Assembly (NCBI RefSeq): GCF_014396585.1
Contig: NZ_CP060717.1
Coordinates: 1,054,001-1,118,000, forward strand
Length of the DNA stretch: 64,000 nt
Direction: 5' to 3'
Source of the DNA: Sphingomonas rhizophila
Lineage (GTDB): Bacteria > Pseudomonadota > Alphaproteobacteria > Sphingomonadales > Sphingomonadaceae
Position 1 is the first letter of the stretch. Every line of letters starts with the position of its first letter. The translations under genes were made by a program, and so were the position numbers. This document shows positions 15,634-21,521 of this stretch, one piece after another. The notes under the pieces were generated by a model. It saw only the letters and a list, made by a program, of their open reading frames with translations, did no database searches and was not told where the DNA came from.

Positions 15634-16680
15634 TTAATCGCCCGACGCTTCCATCAACTTGTGCCGCTTGAGCGCATGGCGAAGCTGGTCGTAGCTGAGA
15701 CCGAGCGCCGATGCCGTCGCCCGCTGATTGAATCGGTTGCGCGCCAGGGCGTCCTCCAGCAGCAACCGCTCGTAGCTGTTGACGGCCGCGCGGAGGTCGT
15801 CGGTCGTCAGAGGTGCGGCCATTGGCGCGGCGGAGGGCGCTTCGTCCGTTGGCTCCATCGGCGCGGGACGCGGCGTCGACGGCAGGATCGGATCCTTCCC
15901 CATCACCCAGGGTGAACTGAACGGATCGAACTGGATTTCCGTAATGGGCCGTTCCGGGTTCTCGTGACGATAAACCGCGCGTTCGACGACGTTCCGCAAC
16001 TCCCGGACGTTGCCGGGCCATTGGTATTCCTCCAGCTTGGCGATGGCTTCCGGCGCGAAGCCGGGCCAGTTCGTCCAATCGAGCTCGACCGCCATTCGCC
16101 GCGCGAAATGCTCGGCCAGCAGGATGATGTCGCCTTCGCGGACGCGAAGCGGCGGTAATGTGACAACTTCGAAGCTCAACCGGTCCAGCAAGTCGGCGCG
16201 AAATCGGCCCTCGTCGACCAGGCGGGGGAGATGCTCGTTGGTGGCCGCGACGATCCGGACATCGACGTTGATCGGCTTGGACGCGCCGATGCGTGTAATC
16301 TCCCCATATTCGACCGCGCGTAGCAGCCGGTCCTGTGCCGGCGACGACAAGGTGGCCAGTTCATCGAGAAAGAGGGTTCCGCCATCGGCTTCCTCGAAGC
16401 GTCCGTGGCGCGTTTTCGCGGCGCCGGTGAAACTGCCCGCCTCATGGCCGAACAATTCCGCCTCGATCAGATTTTCCGGGAGCGCCGCGCAGTTCATCGT
16501 CACGAGCGGGCCGGACCAGCGCGACGACAAGTGGTGCAGGCGCTCGGCGATCAGCTCCTTGCCGGTGCCCCGTTCGCCGATGACGAGGACGGGGCGATTG
16601 AGCGGCGCTGCACGGCTCGCCCGCTCGACCGCGTCGAGGAACGCTAGGCTCTGGCCGACGAACTGATTGGCGCGTTCCAT
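15634..16680 (-). CDS. pspF: Phage-shock operon sigma-54 activator PspF
   Basis: A 348-residue bacterial enhancer-binding protein lacking a receiver domain, as PspF does. The AAA+ domain starts around residue 8; its Walker A is GERGTGKE, the sigma-54 contact loop reads GSFTGA (canonical GAFTGA) and Walker B is GGTLFLDE. The C-terminal Fis-type helix-turn-helix ends with NQRATASALGLSYDQLRHAL. PspF hydrolyses ATP to open sigma-54 promoters and in E. coli is held inactive by PspA. It is transcribed divergently from pspA across a 178-base region that contains a sigma-54 promoter and a palindrome, exactly the classical psp arrangement. Confidence 0.93.
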   Translation of the reverse strand: MERANQFVGQSLAFLDAVERASRAAPLNRPVLVIGERGTGKELIAERLHHLSSRWSGPLVTMNCAALPENLIEAELFGHEAGSFTGAAKTRHGRFEEADGGTLFLDELATLSSPAQDRLLRAVEYGEITRIGASKPINVDVRIVAATNEHLPRLVDEGRFRADLLDRLSFEVVTLPPLRVREGDIILLAEHFARRMAVELDWTNWPGFAPEAIAKLEEYQWPGNVRELRNVVERAVYRHENPERPITEIQFDPFSSPWVMGKDPILPSTPRPAPMEPTDEAPSAAPMAAPLTTDDLRAAVNSYERLLLEDALARNRFNQRATASALGLSYDQLRHALKRHKLMEASGD

Positions 16681-16707
16681 TCCCGTCCCCGAAACTTGGC
16701 CAACTCT

Positions 16708-16725
16708 TGGTGGTAAATCCCACCA
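16708..16725. promoter_or_regulatory. Palindrome, candidate PspF upstream activating site
   Basis: A perfect inverted repeat TGGTGG-TAAATC-CCACCA lies in the pspF-pspA intergenic region about 100 bases upstream of the predicted pspA transcription start. Enhancer sites for PspF in E. coli lie at similar distances. Only 27 bases separate it from the pspF start codon, so binding could also repress pspF, as PspF autoregulates in E. coli. The assignment is from position and symmetry alone. Confidence 0.55.
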
Positions 16726-16799
16726 TCTGGCAAGAAATTTCGGCCCGCCGTTGGTCGAAAAATGCCGTTTTTATCGGATTTTCGTCGACGGACGGATTA

Positions 16800-16815
16800 T
16801 GGCACGTACCATGCA
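16800..16815 (+). promoter_or_regulatory. Sigma-54 promoter of the psp operon
   Basis: TGGCACGTACCATGCA matches the -24/-12 consensus TGGCAC-N5-TTGCA at every position but one (A for the first T of the -12 element). The GG and GC dinucleotides have the required spacing. Transcription would start near 16826, giving a leader of about 33 bases to the pspA ATG at 16859, with GGAG at 16849-16852 as ribosome binding site. The divergent PspF gene is the expected activator. Confidence 0.85.
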
Positions 16816-16858
16816 AGAAAGATGGCACAAAGGCCTTGTTACGAACTTGGAGTGCTAG

Positions 16859-17527
16859 ATGGGTATCTTTTCCCGAACCCGGGACATCTTCGCCGCCAAC
16901 ATGACCGAACTGCTCGATCGGGCGGAAGACCCGGCGCGCATGATCCGAATGATCATCCTGGAAATGGAAGAAACGCTGGTCGAGGTGCGCGCCTCTGCGG
17001 CGCGGTCGATCGCTGATGGCAAGGAAATGCGGCGCGCGTTGTCGCGGCTCGACGAAATCCAGACCGGCTGGACCGAAAAGGCCGAGCTGGCCCTGTCCAA
17101 GAACCGCGAGGACTTGGCCAAGGCGGCGTTGATGGAGCGGCAGAAGGCGGCGGACATGGCCGAGGGCCTGCGCGGCGAGATTGCGGTCATCGAGGAAACG
17201 CTGAAAAGTTACGAGGCCGACATCGCCAAGCTGCAGGGCAAGCTGCGCGAGGCTCGCGCCCGTCAGAATGCGATCGCGACCCGCTTTGAAAGCGCTCTCA
17301 CGCGCGCCAAGGCGAGCGAGCTGCTCAACGGTGGCCGCACCCAGGACGCCTTCGCGCGCTTCGACATCCTCGAGCGTCGCGCCGACCTCGCCGAGGGCCA
17401 TGCCGATGCGCTGGGCATGACGGGGCCCAAGAGCCTTGAGGAAGAGATCGCCGATCTTCGGTCCTCGGACCGGGTCGATGCGGAACTGGAAGCGATGAAG
17501 GCCGCGATGAAGGCCAAAGGGGAATAG
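16859..17527 (+). CDS. pspA: Phage shock protein A
   Basis: A 222-residue PspA/Vipp1 (bacterial ESCRT-III-like) protein. It is almost entirely helical coiled coil: MGIFSRTRDIFAANMTELLD, RAEDPARMIRMIILEMEETL and long heptads through residue 190. In other bacteria PspA binds the inner membrane under stress, oligomerises to seal it, and in its resting state inhibits PspF. Length and start are normal. It is the first gene after the sigma-54 promoter, and pspB begins four bases after its stop codon. Confidence 0.96.
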   Translation: MGIFSRTRDIFAANMTELLDRAEDPARMIRMIILEMEETLVEVRASAARSIADGKEMRRALSRLDEIQTGWTEKAELALSKNREDLAKAALMERQKAADMAEGLRGEIAVIEETLKSYEADIAKLQGKLREARARQNAIATRFESALTRAKASELLNGGRTQDAFARFDILERRADLAEGHADALGMTGPKSLEEEIADLRSSDRVDAELEAMKAAMKAKGE

Positions 17528-17530
17528 ACG

Positions 17531-17821
17531 ATGGAATTCGGAGATCTGATGGGCCTGGTGGTCGCCATGGGCGTGCTGTTCATCGGCCTGCCCTGGCTGG
17601 TGTTCCACTACATCACCAAATGGAAGACGGCGGCCCGGCTGACCGGCTCGGATGAAAAGCTGCTCGATGAGCTGCACGATGCCGCCCGCCGTCTCGATGA
17701 TCGCCTCTGCTCGATCGAGCGCATCATGACGGCCGAAAATCCGGACTGGCGCCGCCAGTGCCTTCCGCCCGAGGAAAATTATCGCGAACGCCTGCTGCCC
17801 AGCCGGGAGGACGCACGATGA
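17531..17821 (+). CDS. pspB: Phage shock protein B
   Basis: A 96-residue inner-membrane protein with one N-terminal transmembrane helix (LMGLVVAMGVLFIGLPWLVF), then an amphipathic coiled coil holding KLLDELHDAARRLDDR and SIERIMTAENPDWR, as in PspB. With PspC it senses membrane stress and frees PspF from PspA. The tail after residue 75 (about 20 residues) is longer than in E. coli PspB, which is about 74 residues. The SIERIMTAEN segment is related to the motif repeated in the five small downstream proteins. Confidence 0.9.
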   Translation: MEFGDLMGLVVAMGVLFIGLPWLVFHYITKWKTAARLTGSDEKLLDELHDAARRLDDRLCSIERIMTAENPDWRRQCLPPEENYRERLLPSREDAR

Positions 17822-18207
17822 GCACGCAACCCCCAAGCCGCACGAGCTTCTACCTCGACAAGCGCCATGGGAAGGTGATGGGCGTCTGCTCCGGCATCGC
17901 CAATTACACCGGCCTCGACGTCACGCTGGTCCGCATCATGATGGCCTCGGCGATGTTCATGAGCGGTTTCTCCATCCTGCCTCTCTACTTCATCGCCGGC
18001 TGGATCGCCGACGACCAGCCGCGGGAGCTGCAGCACGATACCAAGGAAGATCGCCGCTTCTGGCAGGGCGTGCGCGCGTCGCCGGCCCAGAGCGCGCGCG
18101 ACATCCGTTCGCGGATGCGCGAAATTGACCGCCGCATCGGCGACATCGAGATGTACGTCACGACGCAGAACCGCAGCCTGGCGCGCGAAATCGAAGACCT
18201 GCGCTAG
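17818..18207 (+). CDS. pspC: Phage shock protein C
   Basis: A 129-residue PspC-domain membrane protein. The domain is clear: FYLDKRHGKVMGVCSGIANY, then TGLDVTLVRI, followed by a hydrophobic helix (ILPLYFIAGWIADDQP). The last 60 residues are a charged coiled coil ending TTQNRSLAREIEDLR, the same ending found in the next five proteins. The start is ATG 17818, overlapping the pspB stop as ATGA. Its partner is PspB; together they form the membrane sensor of the Psp response. Confidence 0.93.
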   Translation: MSTQPPSRTSFYLDKRHGKVMGVCSGIANYTGLDVTLVRIMMASAMFMSGFSILPLYFIAGWIADDQPRELQHDTKEDRRFWQGVRASPAQSARDIRSRMREIDRRIGDIEMYVTTQNRSLAREIEDLR

Positions 18208-18225
18208 AAGGAAACGGGGGCAATC

Positions 18226-18453
18226 ATGGATCTTGGACCGCTCATTCCCATCGTCGCCATCCTCTCGGGCCTTGGCTGGGGATGGCTAGCGTTGAAACAC
18301 CGCGAACTGAAATTGAAAGGTTCGGGATCGAAAGCGGAAATCGAAACGCTCCGCGCCGAAAACAAGCAGCTTCACGACCGCCTCGCCGTGCTTGAGCGGA
18401 TCGCTACCGACCAACCATCCGCGCTGTCGCGCGAGATCGAAACGCTACGTTAG
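18226..18453 (+). CDS. Small Psp-associated membrane/coiled-coil protein 1
   Basis: A 75-residue protein, 18 bases after pspC. Residues 5-22 (PLIPIVAILSGLGWGWLA) form one membrane helix. A basic stretch follows (KHRELKLKGSGSK), and residues 40-75 form a coiled coil ending LERIATDQPSALSREIETLR. No family name is known to me. The layout (one helix, basic patch, short coiled coil) resembles PspB, and the ending resembles that of PspC. It is the first of five consecutive genes with this plan. The role in sensing or tuning the Psp response is inferred from position only. Confidence 0.8.
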   Translation: MDLGPLIPIVAILSGLGWGWLALKHRELKLKGSGSKAEIETLRAENKQLHDRLAVLERIATDQPSALSREIETLR

Positions 18454-18463
18454 GGGAATTCAC

Positions 18464-18751
18464 ATGGGTCCAAGTCCGGGCGAAGTCATCGCCATCCTGT
18501 TCTCGATCTCGGTACCGGCCTTTCTGGTTTACTACCTCGCCAAGCGCTGGTTCCAGCTCAAGGAACGCCGGCTTGAGGTCGAGGCGCTCGTCGCCACGAG
18601 CAAGTCCGCTGGGCCCTCTGCGGTCACCCGCGACTTCGAACAGCGCCTCGCCGTCCTGGAGAGGATCGTTACCGATCAGAATAACTCGCTGAGCCGGGAA
18701 ATCGACGCGCTGGCGCTCGATCGTCCGCGCAACGTCGAGGCCGTCCGCTGA
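18464..18751 (+). CDS. Small Psp-associated membrane/coiled-coil protein 2
   Basis: A 95-residue protein from ATG 18464 (MGPSPGEVIAILF); a longer frame upstream overlaps the preceding gene and is not preferred. The membrane helix is at residues 6-24 (EVIAILFSISVPAFLVYYL), followed by KRWFQLKERRLEVEALV, which closely matches protein 3 (FKQWVQLKEQQLEAE). The C-terminal motif is LERIVTDQNNSLSREIDAL. Its stop codon overlaps the next start by one base. Function unknown; a paralogue of its neighbours. Confidence 0.8.
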   Translation: MGPSPGEVIAILFSISVPAFLVYYLAKRWFQLKERRLEVEALVATSKSAGPSAVTRDFEQRLAVLERIVTDQNNSLSREIDALALDRPRNVEAVR

Positions 18752-19038
18752 TGGACATTACTGGCATCTTCGCCATTTTTTGCCTGTTCGGCCTGCCCGT
18801 CCTGCTGATTTTCGGCCGGCCCTTCTTCAAGCAGTGGGTCCAGCTCAAGGAACAGCAGCTTGAAGCGGAATCGCGCCTGGCTGCGGAAAAGGCGGCGCAG
18901 TACGCCGCGTCCAATCGCGACCTTGAGGCGCGGGTTCGCGTTCTTGAGCAAATCGTCACCGACCGTGGTATTGAAACGGCGGCGCAAATCGAGGCGCTCC
19001 GCGCGCCGCGCCTTACTGTTGGAGACAGGAATTCATGA
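18751..19038 (+). CDS. Small Psp-associated membrane/coiled-coil protein 3
   Basis: A 95-residue protein. The N-terminal helix is ITGIFAIFCLFGLPVLLIFG (residues 3-22), then FFKQWVQLKEQQLEAESRL begins a coiled coil. The motif is present but more diverged: RVRVLEQIVTDRGIETAAQI and then EALR. The WVQLKEQQLEAE segment is shared with protein 2, so these two are the closest pair in the array and probably arose by a recent duplication. ATGA overlap with the next gene indicates co-translation. Confidence 0.8.
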   Translation: MDITGIFAIFCLFGLPVLLIFGRPFFKQWVQLKEQQLEAESRLAAEKAAQYAASNRDLEARVRVLEQIVTDRGIETAAQIEALRAPRLTVGDRNS

Positions 19039-19334
19039 ACCCCTTGGAAATGGTCGTCATCATCGTGGCGATCGTCACGATCGGTAACATCATCCGCGTA
19101 AAGCAGATGGCCAAGTACGGTCTCCGCGACGATCGCGGTTCGCGCCGGAGCCGTCACCGCGACGAGATCGGGGGATTTGGCAGCGAGGACTACGACCGCG
19201 ACGACACTGCCGAAACCGTGCGGCTCCGCGAAGAGGTGCGTATGCTGAAGGAGCGCATCCACACGCTCGAGCGGATCACGGTTGACAAGGAAAACAGCCT
19301 GTCGCGGCAAATCGACGATCTGCGCAACCAGTAG
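19035..19334 (+). CDS. Small Psp-associated membrane/coiled-coil protein 4
   Basis: A 99-residue protein. It has a short membrane helix at residues 5-20 (EMVVIIVAIVTIGNII), a strongly charged, probably disordered middle (DDRGSRRSRHRDEIG, then SEDYDRDD) and a coiled-coil end with LERITVDKENSLSRQIDDLR. The charged middle is unique to this member. The start overlaps the previous stop as ATGA. Confidence 0.8.
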   Translation: MNPLEMVVIIVAIVTIGNIIRVKQMAKYGLRDDRGSRRSRHRDEIGGFGSEDYDRDDTAETVRLREEVRMLKERIHTLERITVDKENSLSRQIDDLRNQ

Positions 19335-19349
19335 GATATCCAGCAAGGA

Positions 19350-19655
19350 GTGGCGTCGATGGTGGTGATGGACGAAACAGTTGTCCTGCTGATGATCACC
19401 GCCTTGTGGTTCATGGCGGCATACATCGCCTATCAGAAGCTGTTCGTGGTCCGGAAGCTGCGCAAGCAGATCGACGGGTTGACGCAGTCGGCGCTGGATG
19501 CAGCCCGGAGCGTGCCACACTCGGCGCCGGACGCCGACAGCGGAATCGACGTCAAGCGGCTTCAACAACGCCTCGAGGTGCTGGAGCGGATCGCGGTCGA
19601 GAAAGAGGACAGCCTGTCCCGCCAGATCGACGAATTGCGCCTCGCCAGCAGGTGA
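19350..19655 (+). CDS. Small Psp-associated membrane/coiled-coil protein 5
   Basis: A 101-residue protein and the last of the array. The membrane helix is residues 10-27 (VVLLMITALWFMAAYIAY), then a basic stretch KLFVVRKLRKQ, a linker and the motif LERIAVEKEDSLSRQIDELR. The start may be GTG/ATG near 19350 or ATG 19362 (MVVMDE or MDETVV), so the N-terminus is uncertain by a few residues. The stop overlaps a GTG that could extend the downstream sufE frame. Confidence 0.8.
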   Translation: MASMVVMDETVVLLMITALWFMAAYIAYQKLFVVRKLRKQIDGLTQSALDAARSVPHSAPDADSGIDVKRLQQRLEVLERIAVEKEDSLSRQIDELRLASR

Positions 19656-19687
19656 TTTCTGATGGCCGCGCTGCTACGGGCGCGCCG

Positions 19688-20113
19688 GTGACCGCATCCC
19701 TTCCCGACCTGGCGGATATCGCCGACGAATATGAGTTTCTCGACAGCGAGGACCGCTATCGGTTGCTGATCGATCTTGGGCGCAAGCTGGAGCCGATGCC
19801 AGACGCGTTGAAGACCGATGCGACCAAGGTTCGCGGCTGTTCGGCATCGGTATGGGTCTACCCCACCGAAAGGACGGACGGGCGCCTTCATTTCCTGGCC
19901 GACAGTAACGCGGCAATCACCAAGGGAGTGGTCGCATTGATCCTGACGGCAGTGCAGGACAAGCCTGCCGCGGAAGTCGCGGCAATGGACATCGCAGGGG
20001 CGCTCGCGCCGTTCGACCTTTCGCGCGAACTGTCGTCCAACCGGACTCAAGGCATTCCCAACATGATTGCGCTGGTCAAGGATACTGCCACGCGGCTGGC
20101 GGTCAGGTCATGA
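19688..20113 (+). CDS. sufE: SufE family cysteine desulfuration protein
   Basis: A sulfur acceptor (141 residues) that takes persulfide from the desulfurase SufS for Fe-S cluster assembly. The acceptor Cys51 is in TKVRGCSASVW, the place of the GCQSQVW motif, and LSSNRTQGIPNM near the C-terminus is typical. I prefer GTG 19688 (VTASLPDLADI); GTG 19652, overlapping the preceding stop, would add 12 residues. No suf operon is nearby, so this is a free-standing SufE, possibly co-transcribed with the psp array. Confidence 0.9.
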   Translation: MTASLPDLADIADEYEFLDSEDRYRLLIDLGRKLEPMPDALKTDATKVRGCSASVWVYPTERTDGRLHFLADSNAAITKGVVALILTAVQDKPAAEVAAMDIAGALAPFDLSRELSSNRTQGIPNMIALVKDTATRLAVRS

Positions 20114-20565
20114 GCCGTCCGCCGGAGGAAGTATTCTCGGGTCGCGAAGGCAGCTTTGATCCTGCTGCCTTCTTCGCCTTGGCGCGCACGGTCGGCCATG
20201 GCCGAGCGCTCGGGCTCGATTTTCGAAATGCCGGCGAGAATTGGGTGGAGTTGGCCCTGCCCTGGCGGGAAGAACTGGTGGGCGTCCCGGACACGGGCGT
20301 ACTCGCCTCAGGGGCAATCGTCAGCCTGCTCGATACATGCGGCGGGGCGTCGGTGTGGCAATCCATGCGCCGCTTCCAGCATCTCGCGACGATCGATCTC
20401 CGGCTCGACTATTTCAAACCGGCTCAGAAGGGCGAGACGGTCATCGCACGCTGCCACTGCGACAAGTTGACCCGGCAGATCGCCTTCGTGTCGGGCATCG
20501 CCCATATTGGCGACCCCGCTCACCCAGTGGCGCGGGCTACCGGCACCTTCATGATCAACCCTTAG
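20110..20565 (+). CDS. PaaI-type hotdog-fold acyl-CoA thioesterase
   Basis: A 151-residue hotdog-fold protein. The segment TGVLASGAIVSLLDTCGGAS corresponds to the catalytic Asp/Glu helix of PaaI-type thioesterases (family consensus HGG...ALADTA), and LATIDLRLDYFKPA and GTFMI mark the later strands. The usual His of HGG is replaced by SG, so activity may be altered. It would hydrolyse an acyl-CoA thioester of unknown chain. It starts within the sufE stop (ATGA) and overlaps the convergent DnaJ-like gene by four bases. Confidence 0.83.
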   Translation: MSRPPEEVFSGREGSFDPAAFFALARTVGHGRALGLDFRNAGENWVELALPWREELVGVPDTGVLASGAIVSLLDTCGGASVWQSMRRFQHLATIDLRLDYFKPAQKGETVIARCHCDKLTRQIAFVSGIAHIGDPAHPVARATGTFMINP

Positions 20566-21100: not shown

Positions 21101-21154
21101 CACTTCCTTCATTATCGGACCAGCGCCCGTCCCGCCAGTTCAGGCGGAGGGAAT

Positions 21155-21521
21155 GCCAGGGGACCTGTAAGCCGGGTTCTGTCCATCCCTTGCGGGACTG
21201 GGCGACCATTCCTCTAGGACGAAGGTTACCCTTCGCCTCAAGCAACCAACCCGGGCGCCGGGCCGGAACAGGCCCATGTGGCGCCCCTATTCGGTCTTGC
21301 ACCCGGTGGGGTTTACCGCGCCGGAGCCGTTGCCGCCTCCGCGGTGCGCTCTTGCCGCACCCTTTCGACCTTACCCGGCCGAAGCCGGGCGGTATGCTTT
21401 CTGTGGCACTGTCCCTGAAGCGGCGAACCGCCCCGCCGGGTGTTACCCGGCACCGTCGTTCCGTGGAGCCCGGACTTTCCTCGCCTCATCGAAATGAGCC
21501 GCGGTCGCCCGGTCCCCTGGC
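21155..21521 (-). ncRNA. rnpB: RNase P RNA (class A)
   Basis: The catalytic RNA of RNase P, which trims tRNA 5' ends. On the minus strand the conserved 5' block GAGGAAAGTCCGGGCTCC is at 21482-21465 and the matching 3' block GGACAGAACCCGGCTTA is at 21185-21169. The outer helix P1 is formed by GCCAGGGGACC (21521-21511) and GGTCCCCTGGC (21165-21155), a perfect 11-base pairing, which I used to set the ends; mature ends may differ by a few bases. The internal sequence CACAGAAAGCATACCGCC is also family-typical. It lies between ampD and the DnaJ-like gene. Several open frames run through it and are not genes. Confidence 0.95.

What the first reader, a model, noticed from the sequence alone, without database searches (positions are those of the whole stretch)
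18226..19655. Tandem array of five paralogous membrane/coiled-coil proteins appended to pspABC
Five consecutive genes (75, 95, 95, 99 and 101 residues) each encode one N-terminal membrane helix, a basic patch and a coiled coil ending in a shared motif such as LERIATDQPSALSREIETLR. The same ending occurs in PspC (SLAREIEDLR), and PspB contains SIERIMTAEN. Overlaps of one or four bases, and short gaps elsewhere, imply one transcript behind the sigma-54 promoter. This looks like a lineage-specific expansion of the PspB/PspC sensor, perhaps a set of interchangeable coiled-coil partners that tune PspA or PspF to different membrane insults. I know of no description of it.
Basis: partly seen in the sequence, partly recalled or inferred. 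Interest (0 to 1): 0.72.

Follow-up and report, generated by a model that had tools for sequence, protein, structure and literature searches.

The report
PspB-like gene array behind pspABC
Behind a bacterium's membrane-stress genes lies a row of five small membrane-anchored proteins that share one end with the known stress sensors PspB and PspC, and nearly all relatives in its family carry a similar row, suggesting a sensor built from many exchangeable parts.

Summary
Five genes of 75-101 codons follow pspABC at the stated coordinates, downstream of a sigma-54-like site. Each protein has one N-terminal membrane helix and a shared C-terminal helix. Profiles show that this helix is homologous to PspB and to the PspC tail, not generic coiled coil. 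Pfam and NCBIfam models miss it.

The array is not a local expansion. All 49 psp loci of the family in my first sample hold 1-8 such genes (215 in all), and sufE lies downstream in 47. They form about six old classes in a fairly fixed order. The 7 of 149 family genomes with no profile hit also lack PspC. One later genome has psp without the array.

The shared helix carries R-h-x-x-h-E, a published coiled-coil trimerization motif, in 216 of 218 proteins. Its Arg and Glu are present in all 61 PspB and 61 PspC examined. The membrane halves hardly match.

Best reading: PspF/sigma-54-controlled accessory PspB-type subunits that assemble with PspB and PspC through a common coiled-coil code, giving PspA alternative membrane anchors. 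Homology and linkage are shown; assembly is inferred. A 2024 survey mentions 'PspB duplicates' in psp operons in one clause, so this is a new variant of a known kind.

The parts
15634..16680 (-). pspF, divergent activator of the psp operon
   Evidence: TIGR02974 491.5 bits, cut-off 443.55
16800..16815 (+). sigma-54 type promoter TGGCACG-N4-ATGCA ahead of pspA
   Evidence: the only exact match in the window (with one mismatch 2 found, 0.74 expected); site scoring >=12.5 of 15 at 51-63 nt before pspA in 13 of 15 genomes of the genus; rpoN present in the genome; consensus recalled
16859..17527 (+). pspA
   Evidence: TIGR02977 258.4 bits, cut-off 242.95
17531..17821 (+). pspB
   Evidence: TIGR02976 74.5 bits, cut-off 51.7
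17818..18207 (+). pspC; residues about 89-128 are the helix shared with the array
   Evidence: TIGR02978 119.7 bits, cut-off 104; AlphaFold2 helix 89-128
18226..18453 (+). array gene 1 (75 aa), divergent: coil half resembles classes T3/T1/T5, membrane half matches T0 and T2 weakly
18464..18751 (+). array gene 2 (95 aa), class T0, divergent copy
18751..19038 (+). array gene 3 (95 aa), class T0; predicted as one continuous helix 3-84
19035..19334 (+). array gene 4 (99 aa), class T3 (NPxEMVV type)
19350..19655 (+). array gene 5 (101 aa from GTG; 98 aa from ATG 19359), class T3 by clustering
19688..20113 (+). sufE, conserved gene that bounds the array downstream; not part of it
   Evidence: PF02657 117.9 bits, cut-off 27; downstream of all array genes in 47 of 49 family loci

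Best explanation
The five genes encode accessory subunits of the Psp membrane-stress sensor. Each is a PspB-type protein: a short N-terminus, one membrane helix running into a cytoplasmic coiled-coil helix that is homologous to PspB and to the tail of PspC. PspF and sigma-54 switch the whole pspABC-array transcript on together. Because nearly every member keeps the same R-h-x-x-h-E coiled-coil motif while the membrane halves differ, the subunits are expected to assemble with PspB and PspC (and each other) into mixed bundles, possibly trimers. That would vary what the bundle responds to in the membrane while keeping the same cytoplasmic face for releasing or anchoring PspA. Shown: the genes, homology, conserved motif, linkage to psp, purifying selection, and the upstream sigma-54-like site. 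Inferred: topology, co-transcription, mixed assembly, PspA docking, division of labour between membrane halves.
For: Homology: the array profile matches the PspC profile at E 1.8e-8 (95% probability, membrane helix plus tail), E. coli PspB at 3.8e-6, this genome's PspB at 3.6e-4, and the coiled-coil protein PspA only at 0.14. A profile of the five window proteins alone gives E. coli PspB 19.6 bits, but E. coli PspC only 0.6. Iterated, it finds 61 of 61 PspB and 61 of 61 PspC among 2337 ORFs at E<=1e-3, all its other 218 hits lie 3' of pspC, and reversed ORFs score no better than 3e-3. Linkage: 49 of 49 family loci of the first sample, 79 of 80 in a named-genome set; 7 of 7 family genomes without a profile hit lack PspC. 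Constancy against variability: coil half 41% identical between classes and 62% within a class, membrane half 12% and 21%. Motif at its aligned place, strict form: 216 of 218 array proteins; Arg 218, Glu 217 of 218; Arg and Glu in 61 of 61 PspB and 61 of 61 PspC; strict form anywhere in 58 of 61 PspB and 47 of 61 PspC. Selection: median dN/dS 0.11-0.38 against 0.07-0.09 for pspABC. Literature: the PspC C-terminal domain binds PspA in the on state in Yersinia (PMC5596341, passages); E. coli PspC needs its zipper, residues 77-98, to contact PspA (PMC3068692, passages), and its R-h-x-x-h-E-like stretch starts at residue 97; R-hxxhE specifies parallel three-stranded coiled coils (PMC3653964, passages).
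Against: No interaction, expression or phenotype was measured. In E. coli the PspB-PspC contact and PspB self-association do not need the PspB leucine zipper and map to the membrane region, and PspC was not found to self-associate (PMC3068692, passages), so a coiled-coil assembly rule is not proven even for the known pair. [quoted passage not shown] Class T2 proteins match the profile only to about position 64 of 80, so they lack the end of the shared helix. One family genome (G539) has pspABC directly followed by sufE with no array, so the array is dispensable. The structure model is a lone monomer helix and says nothing on partners. A sigma-54 site scoring >=12.5 within 400 nt was found in 37 of 61 loci only, without a shuffle control.
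Confidence: 0.5

Rival explanations
1. The array proteins are effectors, not sensor subunits: extra membrane anchors that recruit and spread PspA oligomers (or otherwise brace the membrane) once the response is on, with no role in signalling to PspF.
For: They lie after pspABC in the operon; they share the PspC tail, and the PspC C-terminal domain binds PspA in Yersinia (PMC5596341); PspB and PspC themselves act as effectors against secretins (same paper). Many copies would raise the number of docking sites.
Against: Simple dosage does not explain why about six classes with different membrane halves have been kept apart across genera in a fairly fixed order with no sign of homogenisation.
Confidence: 0.3
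2. The genes ride in the psp operon but do something separate, for example act as small-protein partners of other membrane complexes, with the shared coil used only for self-assembly.
For: Relatives exist away from psp: a zinc-ribbon fusion in this genome and two genes 80 kb from psp in G379. Median dN/dS of array classes is about 1.3-5 times that of pspABC.
Against: Presence follows PspC closely in the family (one exception) and the coil is homologous to PspB and the PspC tail.
Confidence: 0.15
3. Chance similarity of generic single-span coiled-coil proteins; no common descent with PspB or PspC.
For: Individual Pfam PspB scores are below the curated cut-off; coiled coils resemble one another; the array profile also reaches KcsA chains at E about 2e-3.
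Against: Profile searches are specific: 7 hits at E<=1 in a 2.56 Mb genome; control PspA E 0.14 against PspC 1.8e-8; conserved polar residues Arg and Glu at fixed spacing; no reversed decoy at E<=1e-3.
Confidence: 0.03

Closest known systems
PspB (PF06667, TIGR02976)
   Same: N-terminal membrane helix, cytoplasmic helix with R-h-x-x-h-E, place in the psp operon, homologous by profile
   Different: scores below curated cut-offs; lacks the PspB ending with Trp; most classes instead end like PspC (LAxEIExLR); many divergent copies
C-terminal tail of PspC (TIGR02978)
   Same: shared last helix including L-A-x-E-I-E-x-L-R; profile E 1.8e-8
   Different: no PspC domain in the array proteins
'PspB duplicates' in psp operons, Ravi et al. 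2024 mSystems, PMC11237479
   Same: same idea: extra PspB copies in the operon (one example accession given); also reports a divergent PspB fused to the C-terminus of PspC
   Different: one clause; in section 17 and the passages seen there is no description of arrays, classes, family-wide spread, order or motif, and 'sphingo' does not occur in the main text; the organism of its example and its supplement could not be checked here
Parallel coiled-coil trimerization motif R-hxxhE (PMC3653964, which cites Kammerer et al. 2005 for it)
   Same: R(g)-h(a)-x-x-h(d)-E(e) present in 216 of 218 array proteins
   Different: oligomeric state here untested

Membership tests
PspB | passes the curated Pfam or NCBIfam PspB cut-off | tested here: not met
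   PF06667 14.3, none, 14.1, 16.5, 11.5 bits for genes 1-5 against 25.6; TIGR02976 15.8, none, none, 18.7, 8.1 against 51.7; 1 of 29 diverse array proteins matches PF06667 at E<=1e-3, with 20.0 bits, below cut-off
PspB | single N-terminal membrane helix with C-terminus in the cytoplasm | tested here: met
   by prediction only: 212 of 218 have a 19-residue window with mean hydropathy >=1.6, median start residue 5; C-flank more positive than N-flank in 198 of 218
PspB | conserved cytoplasmic helix with Arg-x4-Glu | tested here: met
   Arg 218 of 218, Glu 217 of 218; both 61 of 61 in PspB
PspB | Trp-containing end after the helix | tested here: not met
   position 71 is Trp in 30 of 61 PspB (24 gapped) but mostly Leu in the array
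PspB | binds PspC and is needed for stress induction | not testable with these tools
   needs bench work
PspC | PspC domain (PF04024) | tested here: not met
   no PF04024 match for genes 1-5
R-hxxhE coiled coil | R-[ILVM]-x-x-[ILV]-E in the helix | tested here: met
   216 of 218 array proteins at the aligned place; shuffled proteins: mean 14.3, maximum 26, of 218 for the looser form anywhere, which also allows Met at d
R-hxxhE coiled coil | parallel three-stranded assembly | not testable with these tools
   no complex prediction or biophysics available

The most novel reading that the evidence does not exclude
This family runs a combinatorial Psp sensor: about six old classes of membrane-spanning subunits, each with its own membrane half, share one coiled-coil code with PspB and PspC and so can be built into many different mixed trimers. 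Cells would thereby tune one PspA/PspF switch to many membrane insults, and a soluble zinc-ribbon protein with the same coil would act as a competing partner.
Probability: 0.3. Interest if true: 0.8.

Novelty: new variant of a known kind. Interest (0 to 1): 0.57.

Why it matters
How PspB and PspC sense membrane stress and hand it to PspA is still not understood. This family keeps a natural library of PspB-like proteins (215 in 49 loci here) in which the cytoplasmic helix is held constant and the membrane part varied, so it offers ready-made swaps to map what is sensed where. It also points to one testable feature, the Arg-x4-Glu coiled-coil motif, that is present in E. coli PspB and, in a looser form, in E. 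coli PspC. Pfam and NCBIfam models do not catch the genes, so they probably stand as hypothetical proteins in most annotations (not checked).

Tried and rejected
Recent local expansion: rejected, since classes are shared by many genera and within-genome pairs of different classes are no more alike than between-genome pairs (0.41 and 0.41 in the coil half, 0.12 and 0.12 in the membrane half). Gene conversion: no sign, same numbers. Generic coiled coil: rejected. Solved-structure relatives: none convincing; the best hits of the array profile are KcsA chains at E about 2e-3 over membrane helix plus coil, and the window's PspC finds one chain at E 0.96. Structure prediction of gene 3 and of PspC gave mostly helices and no partner information, so no fold search was run. 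Internal promoters or terminators in 16600-20300: none above chance. A first scoring of sigma-54 sites within 250 nt of pspA was inconclusive over all 61 loci (22 of 61 at >=11.5 against 38 of 300 shuffles), partly because pspA starts were mis-set for some loci and because in many other genera the best site lies further upstream (no shuffle control). The SufE query was mis-framed and its 'no sufE' labels are void; SufE was placed properly. In one search the label 'array' means any profile hit 3' of pspC; one search checks that these lie before sufE in the 47 of 49 family loci where sufE was found within 4.5 kb. The odd repeated ORF near 21.2-21.5 kb proved to be RNase P RNA.

Full report
What is there. 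The window holds a standard psp locus: pspF on the minus strand (15634-16680), then pspA, pspB and pspC on the plus strand, each over the curated NCBIfam cut-off. Five small genes follow pspC at once (18226-19655), then sufE (19688-20113). Gaps and overlaps are 18, 10, -1, -4 and 15 nt (24 if gene 5 starts at ATG 19359). No promoter-like site was found, and terminator-like sites are no more than chance, in 16600-20300. TGGCACG-N4-ATGCA stands at 16800-16815, its start 59 nt before pspA. It is the only exact match in the window; with one mismatch allowed 2 are found and 0.74 expected, so the match alone is modest evidence. rpoN is in the genome. A site scoring >=12.5 of 15 stands at 51-63 nt before pspA in 13 of 15 genomes of the genus; in the other two my pspA start was probably wrong. 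Co-transcription is an inference from this layout.

Are they related to each other and to PspB and PspC? BLASTP links the five pairwise (E 9e-17 to 2e-3 in a seven-protein database). A profile of the five, run over the whole 2.56 Mb genome at E<=1, hits seven places only: the five genes, the PspC tail (1.3e-4) and a zinc-ribbon fusion (9.3e-7). Against 2337 plus-strand ORFs of 61 psp loci the same five-protein profile finds 211 array genes, 19 of 61 PspC and 5 of 61 PspB at E<=1e-3, and no reversed ORF at E<=1. After three rounds it finds 61 of 61 PspC, 61 of 61 PspB and 218 ORFs 3' of pspC, while reversed ORFs reach 3e-3 at best. 'Array' there means any hit 3' of pspC; in the 47 of 49 family loci where sufE was found within 4.5 kb, all of them lie before it. 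Profile-profile comparison gives E 1.8e-8 with PspC, 3.8e-6 with E. coli PspB, 3.6e-4 with this genome's PspB and 0.14 with the coiled-coil control PspA. So PspB, the PspC tail and the array belong to one superfamily. Ravi et al. (PMC11237479; passages and section 17 read) had already described a divergent PspB fused to the C-terminus of PspC.

How far does it reach? PspC occurs in 192 of 197 genomes of the order. I fetched 60 psp loci, chosen by hand from the listed rows to cover genera, 14 of them from the window's genus. With the window, all 49 loci of the window's family carry 1-8 array genes (1:2, 2:2, 3:7, 4:15, 5:15, 6:4, 7:3, 8:1 loci), 215 genes of 72-123 residues. Of 12 loci from other families of the order, 9 have none and 3 (of the 4 from one family) have one. 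In two other families sufE directly follows pspC, and in three more loci it lies 1.4-1.8 kb away, which suggests that the array grew between two genes that were already neighbours. Named hits of a class T0 profile (80 of at least 406 kept) include Sphingomonas, Sphingopyxis, Sphingobium, Novosphingobium, Altererythrobacter, Erythrobacter, Hephaestia and Stakelama. Two contigs equal in length to G092 and G088 of the window's genus are Sphingomonas alba and S. edaphi. So the family is Sphingomonadaceae in the broad GTDB sense (that circumscription is recalled). In 79 of the 80 loci pspA and pspC lie in the fetched stretch; the last is cut by a contig end. A 29-member profile hits 142 of 149 family genomes (84 of 89 genera); a hit need not be an array gene. 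All 7 without a hit also lack PspC. Of three genomes with a single hit and with PspC that I then read, one (G539) has pspABC then sufE with no array, one (G554) has only a class T2-like gene and one (G519) a single gene. In the class as a whole 22 of 289 genomes have any hit (at most 18 candidates per genome were scored): 5 belong to the family, G379 scores strongly, and the other 16 have E 1e-6 or weaker and may be PspB or PspC itself (not checked). G379, of another family, has two such genes about 80 kb from its psp locus, so linkage is not universal outside the family.

Structure of the array. Clustering gives seven classes with seven or more members (T0-T6), one with three (T7) and eight singletons. 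On a FastTree of 257 rows (one locus per genus, five from the window's) PspB, PspC tails, T1, T2, T4 and T6 are each one side of a branch (support 86, 99, 98, 97, 77, 88); T0, T5 and T3 are not (4, 3 and 5 changes). All labels together need 15 changes against 177 in shuffles (78 columns only, 119 of 254 inner branches open, long-branch warning). T2 is last in 31 of 31 arrays that have it; T5 precedes T1 in 19 of 21 pairs, T1 precedes T3/T4 in 41 of 45 and T0 precedes T3/T4 in 57 of 59. T0 occurs in 28, T2 in 27, T3/T4 in 27, T1 in 25, T5 in 14 and T6 in 8 of 31 genera. The window's set is one divergent singleton, two T0 and two T3. So this is an old, ordered gene set with local gains and losses.

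What is constant and what varies. In 218 aligned proteins the coil half is 41% identical between classes and 62% within a class; the membrane half 12% and 21%. Pairs in one genome are no closer than pairs across genomes, which argues against homogenisation. The constant part reads roughly L-x-x-R-h-x-V-L-E-R-I-a-T-D-x4-L-A-x-E-I-E-x-L-R. The Arg is present in 218 of 218 and the Glu in 217 of 218. Both are present in 61 of 61 PspB and 61 of 61 PspC, and in E. coli PspB (RIQALE, residue 56) and PspC (RLREME, residue 97). [quoted passage not shown] PMC5940361, passages). The strict form is at its aligned place in 216 of 218 array proteins, and anywhere in 217 of 218 array proteins, 58 of 61 PspB and 47 of 61 PspC (47 of 49 in the family, so none of 12 outside it). 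For the looser form that also allows Met at d, shuffled array proteins give a mean of 14.3 of 218, and 4 of 130 other downstream ORFs have it. AlphaFold2 predicts gene 3 as one helix, residues 3-84, mean pLDDT 83, pTM 0.37, and the PspC tail as a helix 89-128 in a poorer model, pLDDT 70. Flanking charge favours N-out, C-in in 198 of 218.

Are they working genes? In nine pairs of close genomes (not independent: drawn from seven genomes) median dN/dS is 0.11-0.38 for four array classes, against 0.07-0.09 for pspA, pspB and pspC, at median dS of 0.6-1.0: constrained, but looser.

Mechanism. In Yersinia PspB and PspC form a membrane complex, and in the on state the cytoplasmic C-terminal domain of PspC binds PspA and frees PspF (PMC5596341, passages). 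In E. coli the PspC zipper (residues 77-98) is needed for contact with PspA (PMC3068692, passages). The array adds several proteins with the same helix and different membrane parts, apparently under the same switch. The simplest reading is accessory PspB-type subunits that co-assemble with PspB and PspC. Extra PspA anchors without a role in signalling are the main rival. Against a coil-driven assembly rule: in E. coli the PspB-PspC contact does not need the PspB zipper and maps to the membrane region (PMC3068692, passages). None of this can be decided from sequence.

Known or new. Ravi et al. [quoted passage not shown] I could not check that organism or their supplement. A second survey (PMC9239133, passages) does not use the word sphingomonad. 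Library searches for psp with sphingomonads found no paper or listed none on such arrays among the rows shown (15 of 44; 15 of 1,064; 20 of 51); the library misses most subscription journals. A Zymomonas mobilis study reports induction of its psp genes on xylose (PMC8645129, passages) without mention of an array in the passages seen. None of the five window proteins passes a PspB or PspC cut-off, and of 29 diverse members 1 matches PspB at E<=1e-3, below cut-off. I file it as a new variant of a known kind.

Noticed in passing
L064:3808-4194 (own genome C1:318307-318690): A 128-residue protein joins an N-terminal zinc-ribbon-like domain (DUF6487, 23.9 bits, just under the cut-off 24) to the same coiled-coil helix as the array. 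Full-length relatives in 2 of 40 other genomes of the genus searched, 3 copies.
   Followed up: partly
L065:3268-4720 (own genome C1:376.8-378.2 kb): A second psp-like locus: another pspA, another pspC whose tail ends AREIEALRGEK, then a class T2-like small gene whose reading frame changes midway (pseudogene or assembly error). Among 59 family genomes 13 match this pspC at E<=1e-8, but only the own copy strongly; the rest are 8e-14 or weaker, some at the ordinary pspC.
   Followed up: partly
L171:3727-4209 (genome G379, another family): Two array-like genes side by side (64 and 76 aa) in another gene neighbourhood, about 80 kb from that genome's pspABC: homologues can live outside psp.
   Followed up: partly
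genome G597, contig 3, 3579512 and 3622641: Equally scoring array matches in opposite orientation about 43 kb apart suggest a duplicated inverted psp locus.
   Followed up: no
L056, L060, L062 downstream of pspC: In these three loci of one other family a second short protein that looks by eye like a PspC domain stands between pspC and the single array-like gene.
   Followed up: no
window 21152-21520, minus strand: RNase P RNA class A (RF00010, 295.3 bits); explains the long spurious ORFs there that recur in relatives.
   Followed up: yes
window 18226-18453: Array gene 1 looks mixed: its coil half matches classes T3/T1/T5 best (E from 5e-10), its membrane half matches T0 and T2 weakly (E about 1e-3 to 2e-3); a possible fusion of two classes.
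   Followed up: partly
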